From Acytostelium subglobosum LB1 (lineage: Eukaryota > Evosea > Eumycetozoa > Acytosteliales > Acytosteliaceae): a stretch of 64,000 nucleotides of DNA. The notes beneath the pieces are model-generated. The model did not search any database. It saw only the letters and a list, made by a program, of their open reading frames with translations, and was not told the origin of the DNA. Shown here in pieces: positions 4,957 through 48,726 of the stretch (position 1 is the stretch's first letter; every line of letters begins with the position of its first letter). The translations under genes and the position numbers were made by a program. Location of the stretch: positions 645,158 to 709,157 of the forward strand of contig NW_012236517.1 in assembly GCF_000787575.1 (NCBI RefSeq). The letters run 5' to 3'.

Positions 4957-5925
4957 ATGGTATGTTGACAACGATCTTCCTACATTATATTACAACAAAC
5001 AACAAACAACAACCAGTGCAACAACAACAACAATTTGACCCATTGGTATTGCCAATACTTTGATGAGAAGTTGGAGAAAGGGAAGAAATAAGGAGATTAC
5101 AAGCCAAAAGTTAATGACAAAGGACAAGCAATCAAATCAAACGATAACCAACATAATTCTTTCAGATTGATCAAATGATCGAATGATTGAATGTTTGATG
5201 ATTGATTATTGTCTGTTATTGCACATTCTGAGTTCTCTATCTCCTCTTCTTCTCTCCAATGGACATTGTTGTTTGATTGATTGTTTGTTGAAAGTCATTT
5301 CATTTACAAAATATCTAACATAATAATATCTCAACCATTTCTATTTCCCTTAGTCCTCCGGTGTCAAGCTCGCTCAAGACTGTATCGAAATCTTCAACCA
5401 GATGAAGTTGGGTCGCAAATTCTCTGCCATCTTCTACAAGATCGGTAACAACAACCAAGAGATCGTTTTGGACAAGACCCTCCCAGCCGGTTCCAGCTTT
5501 GCTGAGTTCTTGTCAAACGTCCCAGCATCTGACTGCAGATACGTCATCGTCGATTACGCCTTCACTGAGGNAGGGAGCCAACAAGAACAAGATTACCTTC
5601 GTCTCTTGGTAAGTTTAATCATATGAAGTGGAGGGCGGGAAGGAGAAGGAAGAAGATATTTTGATCTTTTTTTTTTTGATCATTTTTGTTTTTCAAACTT
5701 CCCTCCCTTCCAATCAATCAATAATCAATCAATTACTAACCTTATTCTCCCTTTTAAACAATATATAGGTGCCCAGACAACGCACCAATCAAGAGCAAGA
5801 TGCTGTACACCTCCTCCAAGGATGCCATCAAGAAGGCTTTGGTCGGAATCCAGATTGAGATCCAAGGAACCGATATCTCTGAGATCCAAGAGACTGAGTT
5901 CTTCGGCAAGGCCACCAGAGTCTAA
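4957..5925 (+). CDS. Cofilin / ADF, actin-depolymerising protein
   Basis: The predicted protein binds G- and F-actin, severs filaments and drives actin turnover in the cytoplasm and cortex. Exons are 4957-4959 (the ATG alone, followed directly by GTATGT), 5354-5608 and 5769-5925. It begins [11 protein letters not shown] and contains the family patterns [22 protein letters not shown] and [10 protein letters not shown]. The third exon supplies [12 protein letters not shown], the actin-binding long helix region, then [10 protein letters not shown] and [10 protein letters not shown]. Apart from one surplus base the length is 137 residues, as in known dictyostelid cofilin. The surplus base sits beside the N at 5571 and shifts the frame; both flanking frames read as good cofilin, so an assembly error is far more likely than a pseudogene. 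Ser near the N-terminus is the usual inhibitory phosphorylation site in the family. Confidence 0.9.
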
Positions 5926-6821: not shown

Positions 6822-7503
6822 TTGACGCGTTTACTTGGTGTTTCTTTTATAATACAAATACACTATAATGAAATAAATAAGATGTAATAGACTACTAATG
6901 AATAGTATGATTGTTTGATTGAATATGTGTGTGGTGGTCTCTGATGGGTCTTTTTTTTGATTTGATCACTTTTTTGGGGTCCACAAGATCAACTTTTATG
7001 TGAAAAGTGTTGTAGTTGAATGAATGAAAAGAGACACTTCCCATCAAATTCAATGTGACCAACGTCTAAAGATGTATGTCTTTGTGTCAATCAATTAATA
7101 CCAAGACCAATCATTCGTCAATGTCAATCAGAGTGTGTGTCAAATCAATCAACATTGATGAAGTGATTGGATTGGTATTGGATTGGAGTGTTATCTATAT
7201 TGATGGCCATCATGTCGATCAATCAATCAATCAATCAATTAATTAAAGTCCAACACACACTACCTTGACAAAGGCTATAAACAATTTAACAACGCTTCCG
7301 TTTCATTTATTATGGTATTGGAGGTAGAAGAAGGAGTAGGGAGTAAGGGAGGGAGGGAGGGAGTAGGGGGAGTAGTGGATGATGTTGGTACAACATTGTA
7401 ATGTAAACAAGGCAGTGGGATGGCATGGTAACGGACATGGCACATGAGTAGTTGGTGTGGAAGTTGAAGTATGGAGTATCCAGTCATGTCTTGGAACACT
7501 GGA
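6822..7503. other. Intergenic region
   Basis: An AT-rich spacer lies between the 5' end of the EF-hand gene and the 3' end of the epimerase gene. It carries TCAA repeats at about 7215-7245 and a GGGAGGGA run near 7345-7370. No coding frame with domain content was seen; the open frame that enters 7275-7503 is only the alternative frame of the epimerase gene. Confidence 0.5.
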
Positions 7504-9369
7504 TCAATGAAGCTCGGAGAGGAAGAATCGGACAGTGCCTTGGTAGGTGGTTGTGGCCGGTCCACTGAGGAATACATAGTCGTCCTCAGCACGCCACTCC
7601 ACATCGATGTTGCCGCCATCCATTTGCACTGTGCACTTTCGTTCGTTCTTGCCACGCAGGACACCGGCCACGACGATGGCGCAGGCGCCTGAGCCGCAGG
7701 CCGGCNNNNNNNNNNNNNNNNNNNNNNNNNNNNNNNNNNNNNNNNNNNNNNNNNNNNNNNNNNNNNNNNNNNNNNNNNNNNNNNNNNNNNNNNNNNNNNN
7801 NNNNNCTGCCAAACACGCGCGCGCACTTGGTTGGGCGCCAGAACCTCGACAAACTCCACGTTGGTCTTGTCGGGGAAGATTGGGTGCGACTCGATCAGCT
7901 GGCCGTAGAAGTTCATCGGGAAGTCCTCCACATTCTCCAGGTGGACTACGCAGTGAGGGTTGCCCATGCTGACCAACGTCGAGTTGATCGAATGGCCTTT
8001 GAATGGTATCAGCTTGCAGTAGTCCTCGCGGTTGGACCTTGTTGAGAGCAGGCGACTGCCTGATGGTGATGGTGATGGTGATGATGTTGAGGTTGCGACG
8101 CCTTGGCCAGTGTGTTTGCCAAAGGTTGTGGATGTAGTCGATGTCATTGTTGGTCGCTGAGTAGTTTGATGGGATGGATGTGATTGATTGATCAGAGCTG
8201 GGAATGGTGACACTATATTTACACTGTTGTTGTTGTTGTTGTTGTTTGTTGTCTGTTGTTGTTTGATTATCTACATTGGGCTCGAGTCCTGGGATACTGA
8301 TTGGGTCCACTGTGGTAACCATCTGTGGCTTGCCCATACACACCTTAACCCAGAGTGTACGCGAGTTGTTCTGTGGATGGCTGGGCAGTGGACAGCACTG
8401 CAGTACTCCGGCCACGGTCTTGACCGTCAAACAGATGGGATTGAACTGATTGTACGGTGACTGTGTTTGGAGACGTGGCTGCTGGTCAGTCTTTGTAAAG
8501 AATGGCACAAGGTGCTGTTGTAGGTGGGCCTGGCCATTGGATGCGCCGCCCGTCAGAGGACTGGCTGGCGCGCCAGATGAGGGCGGGGAGTTGTAGTGAT
8601 GGTTCTCAACGATGTGGCTCGAGCTACCAGCGTTGTTATACGGGCGCACTTGGTAATCAATGATGAATTTGGTGAGACATCGTATGCCGTTGCCACATAT
8701 CTCTGCCATGCTGCCATCCGCGTTGAATATCAGCATCTGGTACTGCGCCGCCGTGACGTTGGAGGGTGGCGGTGTCACGACCAACATGTGATTGGCGCCC
8801 ACGCCTGTTGTGCGATCACATAGGTAGCGAGCGATAAGTTGGAGCTCGGCCAGCGAAGGCACCACATTCTGGCCGGTGATCTCGTTGCGCAGACTGTCAA
8901 TGTGGAAGATGACAAAGTCGTTGCCACAGCCGTGCATCTTGCAAAAGTGCAGCACCAATGGCGGGTCATCCTGCGCGGCAGGGGTGGCATCGCGGCCGCC
9001 AGCCAACGATGTGTTGGCCAAGTTGTGCCTGCTATTCAGGTCGATGTAGTTGGCAGCCGTGCCTGATGTTGTGTTGTTACTGCTGCCGCGGCTATAGTGC
9101 TTTGCAAAGTCTGGCGTCTCAATCAGTGTGTAGTTATAGTCGATCATTGGCACGGCAGCATTGTCATCATCGAACGGCACCATCATTGTGACTTGATGAT
9201 CGTTGGTAGAATTGGTGTATAGTGTTTGGACGTTATGATGGCCACTGCCGTTGTCATCATACTCCTCGTCCAAGTACTCGTCGTCATCATCATACTCCTC
9301 GTCGTCGTCATCAAACTGGAGATCATGATGATCAGCCACCGCTGTATTTATATTGTGATCCAAGTCCAT
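7504..9369 (-). CDS. Diaminopimelate-epimerase (DapF)-like enzyme with acidic N-terminal extension
   Basis: DapF interconverts LL- and meso-diaminopimelate with two catalytic cysteines. Here the first half has MHGCGNDFV, CDRTTGVGAN and NADGSMAEICGNGIRC, the last holding the first catalytic Cys. The second half has VSMGNPHCVVHLENV, IESHPIFPDKTNVEFV and ACGSGACAIVV with the second Cys, and ends at FLSELH. About 140 residues before the domain are Asp/Glu-rich and low complexity. The second half lies in another frame; an intron 8222-8060 (donor GTAAAT, acceptor ATCAG) joins the two halves in frame. The 100-N gap at 7706-7805 falls exactly between VRARVW and ACGSG, where the family has only about six residues (RGxGET), so the true gap is probably short. 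Dictyostelids are not known to me to make lysine by this route, so the substrate is uncertain. Confidence 0.8.
   Translation of the reverse strand: MDLDHNINTAVADHHDLQFDDDDEEYDDDDEYLDEEYDDNGSGHHNVQTLYTNSTNDHQVTMMVPFDDDNAAVPMIDYNYTLIETPDFAKHYSRGSSNNTTSGTAANYIDLNSRHNLANTSLAGGRDATPAAQDDPPLVLHFCKMHGCGNDFVIFHIDSLRNEITGQNVVPSLAELQLIARYLCDRTTGVGANHMLVVTPPPSNVTAAQYQMLIFNADGSMAEICGNGIRCLTKFIIDYQVRPYNNAGSSSHIVENHHYNSPPSSGAPASPLTGGASNGQAHLQQHLVPFFTKTDQQPRLQTQSPYNQFNPICLTVKTVAGVLQCCPLPSHPQNNSRTLWVKVCMGKPQMVTTVDPISIPGLEPNVDNQTTTDNKQQQQQQQCKYSVTIPSSDQSITSIPSNYSATNNDIDYIHNLWQTHWPRRRNLNIITITITIRQSPALNKVQPRGLLQADTIQRPFDQLDVGQHGQPSLRSPPGECGGLPDELLRPADRVAPNLPRQDQRGVCRGSGAQPSARACLAXXXXXXXXXXXXXXXXXXXXXXXXXXXXXXXXXXPACGSGACAIVVAGVLRGKNERKCTVQMDGGNIDVEWRAEDDYVFLSGPATTTYQGTVRFFLSELH
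7706..7805. other. Assembly gap (100 N) inside the DapF-like gene
   Basis: Exactly 100 Ns, so a placeholder length. The reading frame on both sides requires a true length of 2 modulo 3. Confidence 0.98.
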
Positions 9370-10717
9370 CTTCCTCGGCTAAGTGACCTTGTTCAGTACA
9401 GTAGTATTCGCCTCTTCTGGATGTGTTACCAAATATAGTGATGATGGCCAAATATGGTTATGGTTACCAAGTTTGGGTTTGTGTGTTGGATTAATTTAGT
9501 GTTGAATGATTGAGTGAGTGTGAATGATGATGAGGTAGGAATGAGGAAGTCCAATCAGTATGTAATAGAGCGAAAGAGAGGAATATAGAGATAATGTAAT
9601 TATATATAAGAGATAAAGAGTATGAATGTTTTAGATTGATAGTTTAATAGTTTAGATAAATAGTTAGGTACTGTACCAAATATCAACCATCATCGAAACG
9701 GGTGATGAGAGTGTGGCCGTGGACTTGATCGGACCCATATCATCTCCTCTTCCTCCTCCTTCAACTACCACTACCATCATCAAAAAAAGAGAAGAGAGTC
9801 TCATACGTCAATAGAGTGGACCCAAATGTGGTGCCGTTTGCCCATTGCCTATTGATGGCCCACCAACACAGCCAGAGAGGTATCAATATCGCAACGAATC
9901 CATGTTTGAAAAAAAGATAACTTTACATGTGATATTTTGACACCAAAAAATGTTTAAACTCTTTAAAAAATGAGGCCATTATGAGGAGATATTGAAATGT
10001 AGAGAGGAGGAAGGAAAGGAAACATCATAATTATTCATTCATTGGTCACCTGTCTGCCCAGGGATCCGATTGTTGTGATAAACAAAGAATTAGGAAAGGA
10101 TAAACTGTTGCTTTCTTGCTCGTGATTGTGATCCGTTCCAACTCCTAAAAAAAAACAAAACAAAAACAAAACCAAACATAAAAAAAAACAATGTATGTGT
10201 CTAAAAGTCCAACACAACACTTCACCGATACCCACCACACCACTGACTTGGTCCTACCTCTGAGCCTTTGCTCCTCCCATCACTTTCATTCTTTTCCCCA
10301 TGACACACAGGTCAACCCCATTGGGTATCAATTATCTCACACATCACCCCCATCATACACCGCTATTACCCCCTACCTCTACCACAGACGACCATCCAAA
10401 CAATCATAATTCACCTTGATACACTCACACTCATAAACAACAACAAAACACTCACCCCCTACTATTCACATGGTTTAGTTTGAGTGCACGTTCGTGCTCA
10501 CCTCCCTCATCCATCCCTTCCATTCCCAGGCACACTCACTCACACCTTTCACATCATTCACATCATTCACCAACAAGTGGATTGCAAGTCTCTTCTCACC
10601 CTACCCTACCCTTCATTCATTTCATCCAATCTATCTATCTCTTTCAATCAATCAATCATATATATTAGTTTATAATTATATATATCTCAAAAGTAGTTAA
10701 CAAAGACTTAGTGTCAC
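9370..10717. other. Intergenic region with divergent promoters
   Basis: This 1.35-kb spacer separates the epimerase gene (minus) from the twin-zinc-module gene (plus), so it should hold both promoters. It contains poly(A) and poly(T) tracts, a C/T-rich stretch at about 10240-10620 and an AT-rich segment before 10718. The short open frames are Ser/His/Pro-rich products of the skewed composition, not genes. Confidence 0.6.
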
Positions 10718-20017: not shown

Positions 20018-20117
20018 NNNNNNNNNNNNNNNNNNNNNNNNNNNNNNNNNNNNNNNNNNNNNNNNNNNNNNNNNNNNNNNNNNNNNNNNNNNNNNNNNNN
20101 NNNNNNNNNNNNNNNNN
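20018..20117. other. Assembly gap (100 N)
   Basis: Exactly 100 Ns directly upstream of hssA copy 1; true length unknown. On the far side the sequence changes from AT-rich spacer to a more GC-rich stretch leading into the F-box-like gene. Confidence 0.98.
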
Positions 20118-34245: not shown

Positions 34246-37200
34246 ATGCTAGGTACACTCAAGCAAGGAGGATACACCTCCTCCTTCAACAACAAATATT
34301 TCATATATATATGCTGTTGCCTAGTTGTCCTGGCTACATGGTCTGTGACTACAACCTCAGCCAGTAGTCTTGGAACCAGGTTCAGTCGAAGCAACAGTGT
34401 AGTCACTACAACAGACATCAAGTCACTACGAGAGGAATATGACTATATTTTAAAGTATGTATAAATATGATAATATAATACACACAAGGATAATATGACA
34501 TTTCCAAATCAGGTAAAACGACATTGATCATTCACACAATCAATCACACTTCAACACAACAATAGAAATATCAACAACTTGGACTTTAGTTATGACAAGG
34601 CCATATGGGATATAACAAAGAGTTTAAATGCGATACAGTATAAATCAAACTTTAATAACAACCAGTCCTTGGACTTGAGTAAGTGCGCCAGACATCCCAT
34701 CCCATGCTATCGCTAACTAATTCATCAACTCGTCTCCAAACAACAAAGATTGGTTCCCATTTGAAAGTCCAAACAACGATAACAAAGACAATGATAACAA
34801 CAACAACATTGAAAAGGAACATAGTGAAGGCAACAGTTTGTCAACAACTACATCGACAACAACGTTGCCACAAAAGAAACTGAACATTGCTATTGTAGTG
34901 TCCAGTTTTGAAGGTCTCTACTCAACCTCTGGTATTGGAACGGTCTACTCGATTCTGGCCGACTTCCTTGTGGCAAGAGGTCACGAGGTCACCGTTGTGT
35001 ATGCCAGTGATGAGGTCACCGATCGTATGTCTTTCACTCAGTGGAAGACATTGCTGAGGGATAGACGTGGCATAACATTGGTCAGCTTGCCGCCCTCGCA
35101 GGTCGTCCTGGACAACCCGCATCTAGTCAAGCGCTCGTACCGTGTCTATCAATACCTGCGCGACACTCAGTACGACCTGGTGCACTTCCCCGACTTTGAG
35201 GGCATGGGCTACTACACATGTCTGGCCAAGCACAGTGGCCAACACTTTGCCTCCACAAGTCTTATAGTCGGTCTGCACGGTCCTTCGGCATGGGTCATCC
35301 AGTCGAACCGCAAGCATGGCGCCACACAAGAGTCTGAGTTTGAGCTCGACTACATGGAGCGCAAGTCAGTCGAGTACGCAGACCATGTGTGGACGCCCTC
35401 CATCTACATTGTCGACTGGCTCAAGAAGCAGGGCTGGCTCATCCCTCAGGAGCGCCTCTCACTGCTCCCCTTCCTTGCGCCAGTTGTCTCAGAGGACTCC
35501 GCCACAAAGCATCACCTGCAGCAGGACAGGACCACGCAGCCGATCCAAGAGTTAGTTTTCTTTGGTAGACTGGAGAAGAGAAAGGGTGTCGTGCTGCTGG
35601 CCGACGCACTTGACCTGCTGGCCCGACACGACAGCAGCACGTTTGAGCTGCGAAACATTCGCGTCACCTTCCTTGGTCGCGCCTCACACATCGACGAGGT
35701 GTCCTCCAACAAGTACATCAAAGAGAGGGCCAAGCGCTGGCCCTTCAAGATCGAGTTCATCGCTGACAAGACATCCGAGGAGGCTTTGGACTACCTGAGC
35801 AAGCCTGGTCGTCTGGCTGTATGTATTACAAACTCAACATATCATTCGTTTCGTTCAATCACTCACTCACTAACTCACTCACTCAATCAATCAACATAGA
35901 TCATCCCATCACTTGAAGATAACGCGCCTTACACTCTGTATGAGTGTTTGTACCGTGGCATTCCATTCATTGCCAGTTCGACACCATCGATGATCCCACT
36001 CATTGATGCACGTGACAGAGATGACGTGACATTCGACGTCAAGCCATATCTCCTGTTGCGTAAGCTGTCGTCCGCCATGAAGAAGGGCGTCACCATCGCT
36101 CGTCCAACCTTCACCGCCGACAAGTCCCTTCAGTACTGGACGTCCTTCTACGCATCGCTCGAGAACCAACAGTTGAGGATGTTGGCAGCCAGCACTGAGG
36201 ACAGCAGTGAGCAACAGGAGCCATTGGTTTCCGTGTGCATTGTTCACTACAATCGTCCACAGTTGTTGTATCAAGCATTGGTATCCATTGAGCAGCAACA
36301 TTATTCCAACTATGAGGTGATCCTGGTGGACGATGGAAGTAACACAACCGAGGCTCTGCATTACCTTGACAAGCTGGACGAGAGCTTCAAGTCCAGAGGC
36401 TGGCAGCTGATCCGCACAGCTAATCGCTACCTTGGTGCGGCCAGAAACACAGCTGCACGCGCAGCCCGCGGTCAATATCTCTACTTCCTGGATGATGATA
36501 ATGCCGCCTATCCACAAGCCCTCAGCACCTATGTGCGCATTGCTCAGCATACTGAGGCCGATGTCGTCACTGCACCTCACTCGATCATCATGACAGTCGA
36601 CCAGCCCGATGCCAACACTCCCATCGATCGCCAATGGGCTCCATTGGGTCCATCACTCTCAGTCGGCCTTTTCAAGAACTGTTTTGGTGATGCCAACTTC
36701 TTTGTTCGTCGCGATGTCTTTGACAATGCAGGCGGATTCACGGAGGAGGTCGGCGTCGGTCTGGAGGACCACGAACTGCTTGCCAAGCTGGCAATTGATG
36801 GCCGTCGCATGATAGTTGCACCTGACCCCTTGCTCTACTACCGTATGCACGACACACGAGGCCAGATGGTGTTCAAGACCGAGAAGCACCTGAATCAAAT
36901 GCGTTACATACGTCCATATCAGAGCGCCTTTGGTGGTGATGCCAAGCCTGTCATGAAGCTTCTGGCCAGTATCCAGGAGGACCCAGCCACATTGGCCCCA
37001 CCCACGTGTAACATCACAATTACATCGGTCAGTCCCAACAGAGGCCCCGTGCGTGGTGGTACCAGAGTCCTCATCTCTGGTTCAGGCTTTGATTGTCAGT
37101 TTGCCAACATCTTCTTTGGCCAACATCCATGCCAGAAGGTCGAGATGGTCAACTCGCGTCAACTGTACTGTGTGACGCCCAAGGGCTTTGGCCCCGAGAC

Positions 37201-40200
37201 TGTGGACGTCATCATCTGGTCCAAAGGACGTCCAAGCACATTGTTTGCCGGTTTCACCTACGTTGCCGACCGTGCTCCAACACTCACCGAGTGTGATCTG
37301 GATGGCGCTGGCAACATTGAATGTCGTTTCAGCACAGAAGTTGGCCCAGTCAAGCCAGGCTCATCTGCGTGTAACACATTCTTCTCACCGGGTACCGTCA
37401 ACATCTTGGGTTCATCGCCAGTCTGTACCTTCACCAACAACGACACGCTCACACTTACTCCCAGCAGTGACGCATCCATCGATGTTGGCGACACTGTGGA
37501 GACCCTACCTGGAACCATCGAGTCACCTGATGGTGAGTTGAACAATCAAGAGTCCACACAGGTTAAAGTGAAGGACCGTCTGCCACCACTTGCTGTTATC
37601 AAGGCCCCAACTGAGACCGGTACTTGTGGTCCTATGATCCTGGACGCAAGATACTCTCTTCCTGGCTCCGGTCGTCATCTCAAGTATGAGTGGAAGTTAG
37701 TGTCGGCGCCCGACCACCAGAGTGAGCTCGAGTCCATCGTCCAGAGCACCAAGGATGCCTCCCTCGTCATCTCCAACTCATCATTCCAAGCTGGCTCGTC
37801 CTACACATTCCAGCTCATCGTCACCAACATCATCGGCCTGCAGGACAACTCCACCGTCACAGTCAATGTTGTCGCCGGAGATGGCTTGCACACAATGATC
37901 GAAGGCCCACACGAGATGACCATCAGCAAGAATGATCTTCAAATCGAGGCTGAGGCATGGTACACCAGTTGTGTCTCGTCGGGTGAGGACCCCAAGATCA
38001 CCTACCAATGGACAGTCACACCGCCACTCACATTGGGACAGACCAACAGCAAGACATTGTTTGTGCCATCCGACCAATTGAAGCCAGGTGCATCATACGT
38101 GTTCACACTCAATACTGCCGCCGCCGACAAGAAGGCCACAGCTACTATCAAGGTCAATGTCCGAAAGACTCCAGTCTACACATTGATAAAGGGTGGAGAC
38201 AAGACTGTTAGCAGAGGACAGACAGTCACACTTGATGCCTCACAATCGAGCGACCCTGATGGAGGCAACCTCCAGTACTCATGGACTTGCACTTCATCAG
38301 ATGGATCAGATTGTCCCCTGAGCTTGCCCTCCGAGCCAATCGTAAGCTTCAACAGCAGTGAGCTGCCAGTTGGTGCCTACACCTTCAAGGTTACTGCGAC
38401 ACCAAGCGATGACCCCAAGCGCGCATCCAGTGCGGTTCGATCAATCATTGTGACCGACACTCCAACCATCAATGTTGAGATCGACACCAGCATGCTTCCC
38501 AAGCATATCGACCCCGGCCAGAAGCTCGTGTTCAAGTCCATCCTAGTCAACAACTCGATCCCAATCTCGCGTCTGACATTCGACTGGAAGATGGACGCCG
38601 GCCAGCTCAAGATGGACCAACCATACGCCACACCCACCAACCAGCGCAACCTGGCTCTCAAGTCTGGTGCACTAGGCGCCAGCACAATGTACACCGTGAG
38701 CGTCCATGTCATGGACAAGCTTACCAATATGACAGGACAGGCCTCAACCACGTTCCGCACAGAGGCCGTGCCGTCCGGTGGCATGATCAAGACCAATGCC
38801 ACCAATGGAACTGTGTTTGACAAGTACGAGGTCACCCTGGGCAAGAACTGGGCCGCCGACTCTGGCATCCTTGGCTACAGCTTCCGTTATAGCATTGGTG
38901 CCGACCCTCAGGAGTACCCAATTGGTGAGCGTCAGCCCTCGCCAACCATCAGCACTTACCTGCCCCCAGGAGAAATCAAGGTCAAGGGTTACGCAATCAG
39001 TGGAAACGGTGCAGCATCGTCATCATCCACCTCCATCTCTGTGGCTCAGCCATCTGCCGACGACAAGGAGAAGGTGTTGTCATTCATCACAGACCTCGTC
39101 ACCAAGGACAATCTGAACCTGTATGACATCACATTCGCCATTCGTTTGGGTAACAGCATCCTGCCACCAGCAGGCGCTGGCAAGCTCGTTTCCGACGCAC
39201 AGGTCTCTCAGACTGTGAGCTCAATCAAGACATCGGCCATCAACTTGATCTACAACATGATGAGCACTAAGGAGATGACCTACACGCCAGAGGGCATGAC
39301 ATCAGTGGTTGACATCCTCGACCTGGCCACGCACATCAACCAGGTGGTGCCACCCCAACATCTGTCCAATGCCCTGGCCATCATGCGTCTGATCACTGAG
39401 AACTACATCCAGAACCCGATCCTGCCATCTGGTATCACCTCATCAGTGAACGTGGTCAGCAACGTCAACTACCCAACTTGGCAAGCAGCTCAAGAAGTTG
39501 GACGCCAGCATGAAGGACACCGCACTCAATGTGTCCAACACGCTCAGTGTCACTGCCGACAACATTGCCTCTGCACTTTTATACCGTGCCACAAACGGTG
39601 AGGAGCCGATCATCATGGGCAAGGAGGGCGTCACCATCTCAATCTTCAAGCGTGATCCTCTGGCACTCAACGCCGAGGGGTGCCCTGGCCATGGGCCAGT
39701 CGGACGACCCATCGTTCTACTTTGCTCCGGGCTTCCTGACCAAGGTTGCCGATCGTGTCAAGACCGTCGAGGAGGTGGGCGCCAAGTACATCACATTCGA
39801 GGGCAACCCACATTTTGATACCAAGGTGGCCGATGGCTTCACGTACATAAGTCGTAACGCATTCGCTTTCAACTTCCAGGACGAACACAATCAAGAGATC
39901 GCATACCATGAGGCCGATCAGCCCATCGTTATCGATGCTGGACAATACCCGAATGATCACGACTACAAGTGTGTCTGGTGGGATGACACCACATCTCTCT
40001 GGTCCAGCGAGGGCTGTACTACTGAGTTCCGTAGTGGCCGTGTCGTCTGTCAATGTAACCATCTGACCCAGTTTGCATTGCTAGGACGTGTCCGCGCCAA
40101 GAGCAACCTGACCAGGATCCTGATCATTGTTGGATCGGTCGTTGGTTGTGTCCTGTTTGCCGGTCTTCTCGTCGGTATGTTCGTCGTGGCCAAGCGCAGA

Positions 40201-40932
40201 CGTCAAGCCAAGAAGAAGGACCCCAAGAAGCCAGAGGACAAGAAGAAGGAGGAGGCCAAGGAGAAGAAGGAGGCCAAGAAGATTGCCGCCAAGGAGAAGA
40301 GGGCCACGGCAGCCGCAACCGCAGCAGCCAAGAAGGCCGCCTCAACCAAGGGCAAGGAGAAGGACCCTGCCGCCGCCGATGAAAACAAGCAACCTGGCGA
40401 GGGTGAGGGCGAGGGAGACGCGAGCAACATCAACGTACCAATTGCCGCCGCAGTTGGACTGGATGGCGAAGCCAGCAGCAGCGCCAAACAGAGGATCACC
40501 GAAGTATCATTTGGTGATGAGAACGAGAATGACTACATTCTACAAGAGTTCAAGGAGATCTACGAGATTGTCAAGCAGCGTGAGCAACTGGCCACACCAA
40601 AGAAGCAACCGCCCCCAGTGTCGCCACTGACCACCAACGGCTCAATCAGCTCCGCCGAGCCGAGCCCCGCCACATCGGTCCCATCAATCGCCTCGACACC
40701 CGAGCAACACGGAGTGTACACCGAGGTACATGAGCAAGCAGCACTGCGCATCCAGCGAGTGTGGAGACGTCATCAGGCGCAGGTACAGCTGGCCAAGGAA
40801 CTCGAGGTCGAGAACCTGATGGACAACATTGGTAACCTTTTGGCCGACATTGACAACATTGATCCATTGGACGACAACAACTATGGTGATGACTTCTACG
40901 CCGACATGGATGCAGAGATGAACGACGATTAA
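34246..40932 (+). CDS. Giant membrane protein: GT4 + GT2 glycosyltransferases, IPT/TIG, PKD/REJ-like repeats, GPS site, TM, IQ motif
   Basis: Exons 34246-34454, 34566-34678, 34749-35818 and 35900-40932 give about 2,140 residues. Order: signal-anchor helix (about 24-45, NKYFIYICCCLVVLATW); GT4-like domain (about 115-510; GIGTVYSILADFLVARGHEV, ELVFFGRLEKRKG, PSLEDNAPYTLYECL); GT2-like domain (about 570-800; PLVSVCIVHYNRP, VILVDDGSN, YLYFLDDDNAAYP); IPT/TIG (about 833-920; SVSPNRGPVRGGTRVLISGS); PKD/REJ-like beta modules (about 1020-1420); GPS motif (about 1825-1860; CVWWDD ... VCQCNHLTQFALL); transmembrane helix (about 1871-1893); Lys/Glu/Ala-rich tail with an IQ motif (AALRIQRVWRRHQAQ). GPS sites in adhesion receptors and polycystins self-cleave before Thr in HLT. 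Two single-base frame breaks (about 39475 and 39680) have good sequence on both sides and lie in or near short homopolymers, so they are probably errors. Donor and acceptor of sugars are unknown. Confidence 0.8.
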
Positions 40933-45608: not shown

Positions 45609-46733
45609 ATGGACTCACTTCCACTGATTATCATCAGAGAGATATTCAATGAGTTGATCATTCATTCAACTTGTGATCATGATCAAACAGATCATTCTGC
45701 TAAAACATATGAGAATAGTCTTAGGTTGGACATACTCTGCTTTGGCCTAACCTGCAAACGAAGCTTCAAACTCATGTCTAAGCTGGTACCACGTATCAAG
45801 TTCAACGCTAATACGCCATGCATTGAGCATGTCGTCAACAATGACGATCAATGTGGAGTGATCTATGGATGCCAGCTCTTATCTCAGCCCAACTCATTAC
45901 CTCCCAATTTGAAGACAATACTCTACGTTCATAGCATCGCGATCATACCTGGCGTTCTTCCACCGACCATCACTAGGTTGTGGTTTGGTAGGCTATACAA
46001 CATTCCATTGCCACCTAACGTGCTACCATCATCACTAACAGAGCTCAAGATGAGCGTAAATTGGGACCAACCTTTGGAGCAAGGCACACTGCCACAGTCC
46101 ATCACTCTTCTGGAGTTTGGCCAAAATTTCGATCAAGTGCTGCTGCCCGGCGTTCTTCCAGAGTCTCTCCTATCCCTGACCTTTGGATCGTTCTTCCAAC
46201 AGATGCTCGCTCCTCGTGTACTTCCTTCATCACTTACTTATCTCGAGTTTGATCAATCGGAATTGCCTACATCGATTAGTCCCCCTGATGAGATGTTCAT
46301 CGTTGCAGGATCCTTGCCTCAATCACTCCAGACGTTGATCCTACCTGGATGGTTTCAATGTCTAACAAAGGACATGGCACCATCATCACTCAAACGTCTA
46401 CAATATGGATTTTGTACTGGTGTTCCAGCTCAAGGGGAACTGCCATCGAATCTCGAGTACATCAGCTTCAAGGGCCTTGGTGGACCCCTGATGTCGGGGA
46501 CGTGGCCCTCATCAATCCTCAAACTCAAACTTCCTTTGGACTATTCGCTTAACATTGTACCAGGCCAACTCCCTCCATCGCTCACAAAGTTGACCTTACG
46601 CAGGATTCGCAAACCCTCAGTATCGGGAGCATTTCCAGCGACATGTGTGTGGATGACTCATCGCCGCTGGCTTCGCTCCCATTACGGAGCTTGCGCTCCT
46701 TCATTCCCTACTTCCAAATTCTCCGCTCTATAG
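45609..46733 (+). CDS. F-box-like protein with FNIP-type repeats
   Basis: 374 residues, single exon. The start MDSLPLIIIREIFNELI with DILCFGLTCKRSFKLMSKLV is F-box-like. From about residue 95 there are 9-10 repeats of roughly 22 residues of the form LPxSLTxLxFGxxFxQPLxPGVLP, for example ILPGVLPESLLSLTFGS and VLPSSLTYLEFDQ. This is the FNIP repeat, hugely expanded in dictyostelids and linked to F-box proteins. The C-terminal 25 residues break the pattern and are encoded by a GC-rich, hairpin-prone stretch (GGAGCTTGCGCTCC at about 46695-46708), so the original 3' end may have been replaced. The neighbouring 46.76-47.13 kb repeats support local rearrangement. Confidence 0.85.
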   Translation: MDSLPLIIIREIFNELIIHSTCDHDQTDHSAKTYENSLRLDILCFGLTCKRSFKLMSKLVPRIKFNANTPCIEHVVNNDDQCGVIYGCQLLSQPNSLPPNLKTILYVHSIAIIPGVLPPTITRLWFGRLYNIPLPPNVLPSSLTELKMSVNWDQPLEQGTLPQSITLLEFGQNFDQVLLPGVLPESLLSLTFGSFFQQMLAPRVLPSSLTYLEFDQSELPTSISPPDEMFIVAGSLPQSLQTLILPGWFQCLTKDMAPSSLKRLQYGFCTGVPAQGELPSNLEYISFKGLGGPLMSGTWPSSILKLKLPLDYSLNIVPGQLPPSLTKLTLRRIRKPSVSGAFPATCVWMTHRRWLRSHYGACAPSFPTSKFSAL

Positions 46734-48068: not shown

Positions 48069-48726
48069 GTATGCTTGAAGGGAGCTCCNNNNNNNNNNNN
48101 NNNNNNNNNNNNNNNNNNNNNNNNNNNNNNNNNNNNNNNNNNNNNNNNNNNNNNNNNNNNNNNNNNNNNNNNNNNNNNNNNNNNNNNNTGCAGGTATTGA
48201 GAGAGAAGAGTACAGAATGATGTCTTACCAAAAAAAAAAAAAAAAAAAAAAAAAAGAAAAAAATAAAAAAAAAATTGGAAAAACACCTCATTTAGTGTCT
48301 CGGTACGTTTAGTGATGGTCACCGATTCAATATCGATACCTTCAGTCTGGTATGTTTCTTGTGCGAATGACCCAAACACATCTAATGGTAATGTCAATGT
48401 CAGTATCGATCAAACACATCACTCGCTCTCCTCTGTACTTACTTGCATGGCCAGCTCCTCCTGTAGCACCGGCTTGAGTGTGTATGTTAGTATTGAATGA
48501 AGACATTGCGCCGATGTTGTTTGTACTTACGAGCTGGGGGAAGATGCGCACGAACAATTGCCCGAGGGCCCATGGGTGGGATCAGTTCTTTCCAATCGCT
48601 GTCACTGAGTCCTTGCAGGGATTTGATTGTGAGACCTTGCTTCTTGATGGCCTCCACAGTGTCCTTGCGGAAATCTTTGGGTATCTCTGACTCATCAGAC
48701 AGTATCCAATTGAAGAGGTCGTCCAT
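47225..48726 (-). CDS. Crinkler (CRN)-family protein, interrupted by a gap
   Basis: Exons on the minus strand are 48726-48531 (start MDDLFNWILSDESEIPKDF), 48472-48443, 48381 to about 48289, then a large part from about 47983 to 47225. The N-terminus is SAM-like (GLSDSDWKELIPPMGPRAIV), as in dictyostelid and fungal Crinkler proteins. The C-terminal part has DPLEEFWQKEFYRAARSVMP, FFVNTGLNWGIELT-x-EGDEL, LNRFLPGGLYYHF and DYLVLDFRSV, the order typical of CRN C-terminal domains. CRN proteins are known as nucleus-targeted effectors of oomycetes and chytrids and also occur in free-living protists, where they are proposed to act in conflict or defence. A 100-N gap flanked by long T runs falls in what may be an intron, and one N (about 47532) interrupts a codon. 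The biochemical activity here is not established. Confidence 0.7.
48089..48188. other. Assembly gap (100 N) between two long poly(A)/poly(T) tracts
   Basis: The gap lies between A-rich tracts at about 47992-48065 and 48231-48275 (plus strand), one of which contains an uninterrupted run of more than 40 A. Such runs stop many sequencing methods, which explains the gap. GGAGCTCC directly before the Ns is a palindrome. Confidence 0.95.

What the first reader, a model, noticed from the sequence alone, without database searches (positions are those of the whole stretch)
34246..40932. Predicted fusion of two glycosyltransferases with a GPS-cleaved, TIG/PKD receptor-like ectodomain
One continuous gene model joins a signal anchor, a GT4-like and a GT2-like domain, an IPT/TIG domain, PKD/REJ-like repeats, a GPS motif (CQCNHLT), a transmembrane helix and an IQ motif. 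I know GPS sites from adhesion receptors and polycystins, and GT2/GT4 enzymes from polysaccharide synthesis; I do not recall them together. A topology with the enzymes on the same side as the GPS ectodomain is implied, and autoproteolysis could release the catalytic part. The IQ motif suggests calmodulin control on the cytosolic side.
Basis: partly seen in the sequence, partly recalled or inferred. Interest (0 to 1): 0.82.

Follow-up and report, generated by a model that had tools for sequence, protein, structure and literature searches.

The report
Glycosyltransferase pair on polycystin-like stalk
A gene of what looks like a social amoeba joins a bacterial-type pair of sugar-adding enzymes to a polycystin-like membrane stalk with a self-cleavage site, an unusual combination, although the assembled sequence has two reading-frame breaks just before that site.

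Summary
From an ATG at 34246, four exons encode a hydrophobic N-terminus, GT4, GT2, IPT/TIG, PKD, REJ, a GPS with CQCNHLT, one transmembrane helix and a basic tail. GT2 to REJ lies in one stop-free stretch, so a gene break between GT2 and TIG is unlikely. I favour draft-assembly error over gene decay, without proof.

The GT4-GT2 pair is a bacterial-type module (40% identity over about 650 residues to an Anaerolineales protein), sporadic in bacteria. The stalk resembles the PKD1/REJ family. In the 30.7-Mb genome, GPS, REJ and K319L-type PKD were each found only in this gene. Best reading: a lumenal or surface bifunctional glycosyltransferase on a GPS-cleavable stalk. Topology, activity, cleavage and release are inferred.

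The parts
34246..40932 (+). whole gene, ATG to stop, about 2,140 codons counted over three frames
34291..34365 (+). hydrophobic N-terminal segment (signal anchor or cleaved signal peptide, not decided), aa 16-40
   Evidence: hydropathy maximum 1.87 over 19 residues; coordinates
34455..34565 (+). intron 1, 111 nt, 29% GC
34679..34748 (+). intron 2, 70 nt, 46% GC
34928..35470 (+). GT4 N-terminal half (Glyco_transf_4, aa 168-348)
   Evidence: 7.6e-13; coordinates
35552..35992 (+). GT4 C-terminal half (Glycos_transf_1, aa 376-495), interrupted by intron 3 at 35819-35899
   Evidence: 1.3e-8; coordinates
36230..36577 (+). GT2 domain (Glycos_transf_2, aa 575-690); DDG, DDD and ED residues kept
   Evidence: 3.3e-26; invariant columns in an alignment with 7 bacterial rows
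37016..37228 (+). IPT/TIG domain
   Evidence: 8.2e-12; plexin-A1 9.8e-10
37988..39091 (+). REJ domain, holding a K319L-like PKD match at 38192-38422
   Evidence: REJ 6.9e-49, PKD 1.4e-21; coordinates
39465..39485 (+). first frame change (approximate place)
   Evidence: coding signal per frame
39660..39685 (+). second frame change (approximate place)
   Evidence: coding signal per frame
39964..40083 (+). GPS, with CQCNHLT at 40048-40068
   Evidence: 3.3e-13; whole-genome search 5.2e-13
40123..40200 (+). transmembrane helix, followed by a basic stretch
   Evidence: hydropathy maximum 2.88
40735..40785 (+). weak IQ-like motif, below the Pfam cut-off
   Evidence: 15.2 bits against 20.3

Best explanation
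One gene encodes a membrane protein with a bacterial-type bifunctional glycosyltransferase (GT4 then GT2) at its lumenal or outer end, held on a TIG-PKD-REJ-GPS stalk by one transmembrane helix with a basic cytosolic tail. The two enzymes probably add two successive or alternating sugars to a surface or matrix glycan, using nucleotide sugars inside the secretory pathway. The GPS is expected to self-cleave between L and T of HLT, so that an N-terminal fragment with both enzymes stays non-covalently on a C-terminal fragment of 288 residues and could be released. Shown here: domain order, stop-free join of GT2 to stalk, kept GT2 catalytic residues, GPS sequence, bacterial relatives of the whole enzyme pair. 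Inferred: topology, GAIN fold, cleavage, activity, location, release, and that the two frame changes are assembly errors.
For: Pfam domains; one stop-free stretch from the end of GT4 through REJ with even GC3 across the join; only two candidate membrane segments, one at each end of the enzyme-plus-stalk part; DDG, DDD and ED kept in line with 7 bacterial rows; GPS best PDB sequence match is an adhesion-GPCR chain, 7qu8, 5.2e-9; 9 of the 11 N-glycosylation sequons in the first 1,656 residues lie at aa 835 or later, in the stalk; bacterial proteins with the same GT4-GT2 order, one beside a polysaccharide pyruvyl transferase gene; a paralogue with an N-terminal anchor, GT4 and degenerate GT2 in the same genome; PMC1934368 passages: PKD1-family proteins are cleaved at the GPS with both halves kept together.
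Against: Two frame changes cut the frame before the GPS as assembled. No GAIN model matched. No second copy of the stalk exists in the genome to compare, and no other dictyostelid was available. The bacterial relatives are presumably cytosolic enzymes (recalled), so work in the lumen would be a change of place. The REJ stretch holds 2 cysteines, not the 6 of complete REJ domains. The PKD part also matches a bacterial M36-peptidase model better (2.6e-17) than the polycystin channel model (1.7e-9), both far below their cut-offs.
Confidence: 0.5

Rival explanations
1. The gene is decaying in this strain. The frame changes are real, and the product is a secreted or N-terminally anchored GT4-GT2-TIG-REJ protein without GPS, helix and tail.
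For: Two frame changes within about 200 bases and none seen in the rest of the coding sequence.
Against: The rest of the gene is open, and 1,257 bases after the second change stay open with strong coding signal up to 39,870 where one search stopped, and to the stop. The assembly is a scaffolded draft (three runs of 100 N), and two other genes seem to change frame as well.
Confidence: 0.2
2. It is a receptor, not an enzyme: a polycystin-1-like sensor whose GT4-GT2 head binds sugars but no longer transfers them, perhaps a partner of polycystin-2.
For: Stalk and GPS are of PKD1/REJ type; two PKD_channel matches in the genome; PMC11012017 names DDB_G0289409 as a putative Dictyostelium PC1 homologue (passages); a degenerate GT2 exists in the paralogue.
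Against: In the window gene the GT2 residues DDG, DDD and ED are kept. PMC3919814 states that PKD1 is absent from Dictyostelium (passage). The tail lacks PLAT and the channel helices.
Confidence: 0.17
3. The fusion is an assembly chimaera of two unrelated genes.
For: Draft assembly; no relative with the whole fusion was found in the collections searched, which hold no eukaryotes by design.
Against: The join lies in a stop-free stretch without N and without a step in GC3. The paralogue on C49 also carries an extra C-terminal domain, a sulfotransferase, in one 1,181-codon frame.
Confidence: 0.08

Closest known systems
PKD1/REJ family, single-helix members such as sea urchin SpREJ1, SpREJ8 and SpREJ9 (PMC1934368, passages)
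   Same: PKD and REJ domains, then a GPS just before a single transmembrane helix
   Different: GT4-GT2 and TIG in place of other N-terminal domains; no PLAT; only 2 cysteines in the REJ stretch
Bacterial GT4-GT2 bifunctional glycosyltransferases (L034 Anaerolineales, L035 Competibacteraceae, L046 Citrobacter plasmid)
   Same: Both domains in the same order in one frame, 36-40% identity over the module
   Different: No Pfam scan of these was made; their open frames end without a stretch aligned to the TIG-REJ-GPS part
Own-genome paralogue L021:1327-4872
   Same: N-terminal anchor, GT4, GT2-like region (27-30% identity)
   Different: GT2 has lost its DDG and DDD, and a sulfotransferase takes the place of the stalk
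Adhesion GPCRs
   Same: GPS sequence (7qu8, 5.2e-9)
   Different: One helix after the GPS rather than seven; PMC10445921 detected no GAIN domain in amoebozoan family-2 GPCRs (passage)
Two-domain polysaccharide synthases such as K4 chondroitin synthase (2z86, 2z87)
   Same: Best PDB sequence match of the GT2 part, 2.4e-13, two stretches
   Different: As the match shows, its two domains both align to the one GT2 here; the window protein pairs GT4 with GT2

Membership tests
PKD1/REJ family (features as in PMC1934368) | REJ domain | tested here: met
   6.9e-49, profile 11-428 of 452
PKD1/REJ family (features as in PMC1934368) | GPS upstream of the first transmembrane helix of the stalk | tested here: inconclusive
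   GPS 3.3e-13 before the helix, but in another frame than the REJ as assembled
PKD1/REJ family (features as in PMC1934368) | PLAT/LH2 domain after the first helix (present in 5 of 10 sea urchin and 5 of 5 human members according to the paper) | tested here: not met
   no PLAT among the families listed for 39676-40932 at E up to 1
PKD1/REJ family (features as in PMC1934368) | six conserved cysteines of complete REJ domains | tested here: not met
   cysteines 1261 and 1269 only within the REJ match, aa about 1161-1528
GT2 glycosyltransferase | profile match and catalytic acidic motifs | tested here: met
   3.3e-26; DDG, DDD, ED in invariant columns
GT4 glycosyltransferase | both GT-B halves match | tested here: met
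   PF13439 7.6e-13, PF00534 1.3e-8
Autoproteolysed GPS protein | HLT (or HLS) cleavage tripeptide with the GPS cysteines | tested here: met
   CQCNHLT at 40048-40068, full-length GPS match 1-45/45; the meaning of the tripeptide is recalled
Autoproteolysed GPS protein | GAIN fold around the GPS | not testable with these tools
   no family match for 39450-39674; structure prediction switched off
Autoproteolysed GPS protein | cleavage itself | not testable with these tools
   needs an immunoblot
Adhesion GPCR | seven-helix domain after the GPS | tested here: not met
   one hydrophobic segment in 39676-40932; no 7tm family listed
IQ / calmodulin-binding protein | Pfam IQ score over the cut-off | tested here: not met
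   15.2 bits against 20.3

The most novel reading that the evidence does not exclude
This is the amoebal counterpart of polycystin-1: a GPS-cleaved, REJ-stalked surface protein whose head synthesises glycan with a bacterially derived GT4-GT2 enzyme, and which sheds that enzyme or signals, possibly through polycystin-2, according to the state of the glycan it makes. GPS autoproteolysis would then serve the placing and release of an enzyme.
Probability: 0.15. Interest if true: 0.88.

Novelty: new variant of a known kind. Interest (0 to 1): 0.6.

Why it matters
If the reading holds, the only GPS, REJ and K319L-type PKD found in this genome serve a bifunctional sugar-transferring enzyme and not a GPCR or channel. 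It would give GPS autoproteolysis a role in placing and releasing an enzyme, show a bacterial polysaccharide module recruited into a eukaryotic membrane protein, and bear on the conflicting statements about a polycystin-1 in Dictyostelium (PMC3919814: absent; PMC11012017: a putative one).

Tried and rejected
Viral carriers: the exon-4 GT piece and the stalk piece gave no relative in viral contigs (pattern-based scans that find close relatives only). In the phage records 10 of 50,697 matched the GT piece, 0 over 80% of it.

Introns as the cause of the frame changes: judged unlikely from donor sequence, GC and coding signal, within the ranges scanned.

Two separate genes: judged unlikely, since there is no stop, gap or compositional step at the join. 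An in-frame intron there was not tested.

Number and donor of transfers: the tree of 10 GT4-GT2 rows is unresolved around the window gene (2 of 7 inner branches well supported); by path its nearest rows are bacterial, not the own-genome paralogue, but holding window gene and paralogue as one clade is not rejected (p-AU 0.246). No eukaryotic outgroup was available, so transfer from bacteria is inferred from distribution only.

How common the module is: 1 of 201 and 4 of 299 sampled genomes at E up to 1e-60; each count includes the seed genome, so 0 of 200 and 3 of 298 beyond it. At most 6 and 4 candidates per genome were scored, so these are lower bounds.

Structure prediction of the GPS region: switched off.

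Literature: ten answered searches of the held open-access library showed no paper on this fusion. Passages only were read of PMC10445921, PMC12716839, PMC8409312, PMC3482391, PMC6626334, PMC4335454, PMC6422961, PMC11012017, PMC3919814, PMC4999191 and PMC1934368; other papers were seen as listings. Most subscription papers, UniProt and dictyBase were not searchable. I recall, and did not see here, that Arac and colleagues (2012) reported GAIN domains in Dictyostelium.

Full report
What was checked. The finding places a two-glycosyltransferase, GPS-bearing membrane protein at 34246-40932 (+). I rebuilt the gene, searched its pieces against Pfam, NCBIfam and PDB sequences, searched the window's own genome and prokaryotic, viral, phage and plasmid collections, and read passages of papers.

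Gene model. Of 18 GT/AG combinations tried, 1 gives an open frame: exons 34246-34454, 34566-34678, 34749-35818 and 35900 onward. The three introns are 111, 70 and 81 nt, begin GTATGT or GTAAGT and are 29-46% GC. The fourth exon is stop-free from 35900 to 39601. The second GT4 half crosses the third intron, so exons 3 and 4 belong together.

Domains. GT4: Glyco_transf_4 7.6e-13 and Glycos_transf_1 1.3e-8. GT2: Glycos_transf_2 3.3e-26. TIG 8.2e-12. REJ 6.9e-49. K319L-like PKD 1.4e-21. GPS 3.3e-13. These pass their curated cut-offs; IQ does not (15.2 against 20.3 bits). PDB sequence matches agree: plexin-A1 for TIG (9.8e-10), adhesion GPCRs for the GPS (best 5.2e-9), bacterial GT2 enzymes with chondroitin synthase first (2.4e-13). 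NCBIfam gave no match over its cut-off for the four pieces sent; the PKD part matched a bacterial M36-peptidase model (2.6e-17) better than the polycystin channel model (1.7e-9). Hydropathy shows one N-terminal segment and one after the GPS. No GAIN model matched, and the piece 39450-39674 matched no family.

Coding signal moves from the frame of 35900 to a second frame near 39.47 kb and a third near 39.67 kb. Within the ranges scanned, 8 and 2 GT-AG stretches would match the frames, but none has the donors of the gene's real introns and they are 51-61% GC. As assembled the frame ends at 39601, before the GPS. The window is a scaffolded draft: 100-N runs at 7706-7805, 20018-20117 and 48089-48188 and single N at three places, none in this gene. 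A DAP-epimerase-like gene at 7278-9378 (-) carries matches to one domain in two frames beside an N run (introns not excluded), and a GT2-GT4-GT61 gene elsewhere seems to change frame near L020:5500 (read by eye). I therefore favour assembly error over decay, without proof.

Origin of the enzyme pair. The 344-residue exon-4 GT piece found 5 loci among 85 pattern matches in a collection of one genome for each of 84,980 species. Four of the 5 (L034-L037) hold one open frame aligned to both GT4 and GT2; the fifth contig begins inside the gene. Over the module, BLAST identity to the window protein is 40% (Anaerolineales), 39% (Competibacteraceae), 36% (Citrobacter plasmid), 34 and 32% (Bacteroidetes), 33% (G242), 31% (G217), 27% (G408) and 27% (own-genome paralogue). 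Of 72,556 plasmid records 116 matched the piece, 25 over at least 80% of it; beside the Citrobacter copy lies a polysaccharide pyruvyl transferase gene. The module is sporadic: 1 of 201 and 4 of 299 sampled genomes, each count including its seed genome. The window gene is nearer in identity to several bacterial proteins than to its own paralogue, but the tree is unresolved and one clade of the two is not rejected.

Own-genome context. GPS (1 match, 3 candidates scored), REJ (1 match, 2 scored) and K319L-type PKD (2 matches, both here) were found only in this gene. TIG is common: 150 matches, with 150 of 397 candidates scored. The one other GT4-GT2 protein found by search with the window protein is on C49: anchor, GT4, a GT2-like region without DDG and DDD, and a sulfotransferase. 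Two other places hold GT2 then GT4. Two PKD_channel matches exist. That the organism is a dictyostelid is inferred from the FNIP repeats in the window (the link is recalled); no tool named it.

How it most likely works. The N-terminal segment brings GT4 and GT2 into the lumen, the stalk holds them off the membrane, and the basic stretch after the helix fits a cytosolic tail. In line with that, 9 of the 11 sequons in the first 1,656 residues lie at aa 835 or later. GT2 keeps its acidic residues in line with 7 bacterial rows, so a working transferase is the simplest reading. GPS cleavage between L and T would leave 288 residues on the C-terminal side (40066-40929). In SpREJ3 and human PKD1 the chain is cleaved at the GPS and both halves stay together (PMC1934368, passages). 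Topology, cleavage, activity and release are inferred here.

Comparison. By REJ and a GPS before a single helix it resembles the single-helix PKD1/REJ proteins of sea urchin, but it has no PLAT and only two cysteines in its REJ stretch, so I say 'REJ-type stalk' and do not file it as a PKD1 protein. It is not an adhesion GPCR. PMC10445921 detected no GAIN domain in amoebozoan family-2 GPCRs (passage). On a Dictyostelium polycystin-1 the papers disagree: PMC3919814 says PKD1 is absent (passage), PMC11012017 names DDB_G0289409 as putative (passages). Whether that gene is the orthologue of this one is open and is the first thing to check.

Novelty and score. Ten answered searches of the held library showed no paper on the fusion (listed under Tried and rejected); subscription papers and database entries were out of reach, so it may be annotated elsewhere. 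Each part is known; a bacterial-type GT4-GT2 head on a REJ-GPS stalk is the new element. Interest 0.6: surprising and directly testable, held down by the frame changes and the lack of an orthologue.

Noticed in passing
L021:1327-4872 (+), own genome C49: One 1,181-codon frame with N-terminal anchor, GT4, a GT2-like region without its DDG and DDD, and a sulfotransferase (2.6e-17).
   Followed up: partly
L020:2629-6525 (+), own genome C36: GT2, GT4 and GT61 domains in a row in three open frames, with an apparent frame change near 5500.
   Followed up: partly
L019:2414-5875 (+), own genome C50: GT2 frame (567 codons) followed by a GT4 frame (499 codons), possibly one gene with an intron.
   Followed up: partly
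window 7278-9378 (-): Diaminopimelate-epimerase-like gene with domain matches in two overlapping frames around a run of 100 N. Such an enzyme in an amoeba suggests transfer from bacteria; not tested.
   Followed up: partly
window 7706-7805, 20018-20117, 48089-48188: Three runs of exactly 100 N, and single N at 409, 5571 and 47532: scaffold gaps of a draft assembly.
   Followed up: no
window 45609-46733 (+): FNIP repeats (1.8e-41).
   Followed up: no
L042:1-1308 (-), G217: The gene after this bacterial GT4-GT2 homologue runs off the locus and ends in a stretch that looks like the start of a sulfotransferase (by eye), echoing the sulfotransferase fused in L021.
   Followed up: no
L036:3006-7772 and L037:2913-9803 (+): Bacteroidetes relatives are very long open frames (1,589 and 2,297 codons) with further glycosyltransferase-like stretches; their GT4 motif is divergent.
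   Followed up: no
L044:1321-4008 (+), G408: A bacterial homologue whose GT2 part seems to lack the DDD motif (by eye), as in the amoebal paralogue L021.
   Followed up: no
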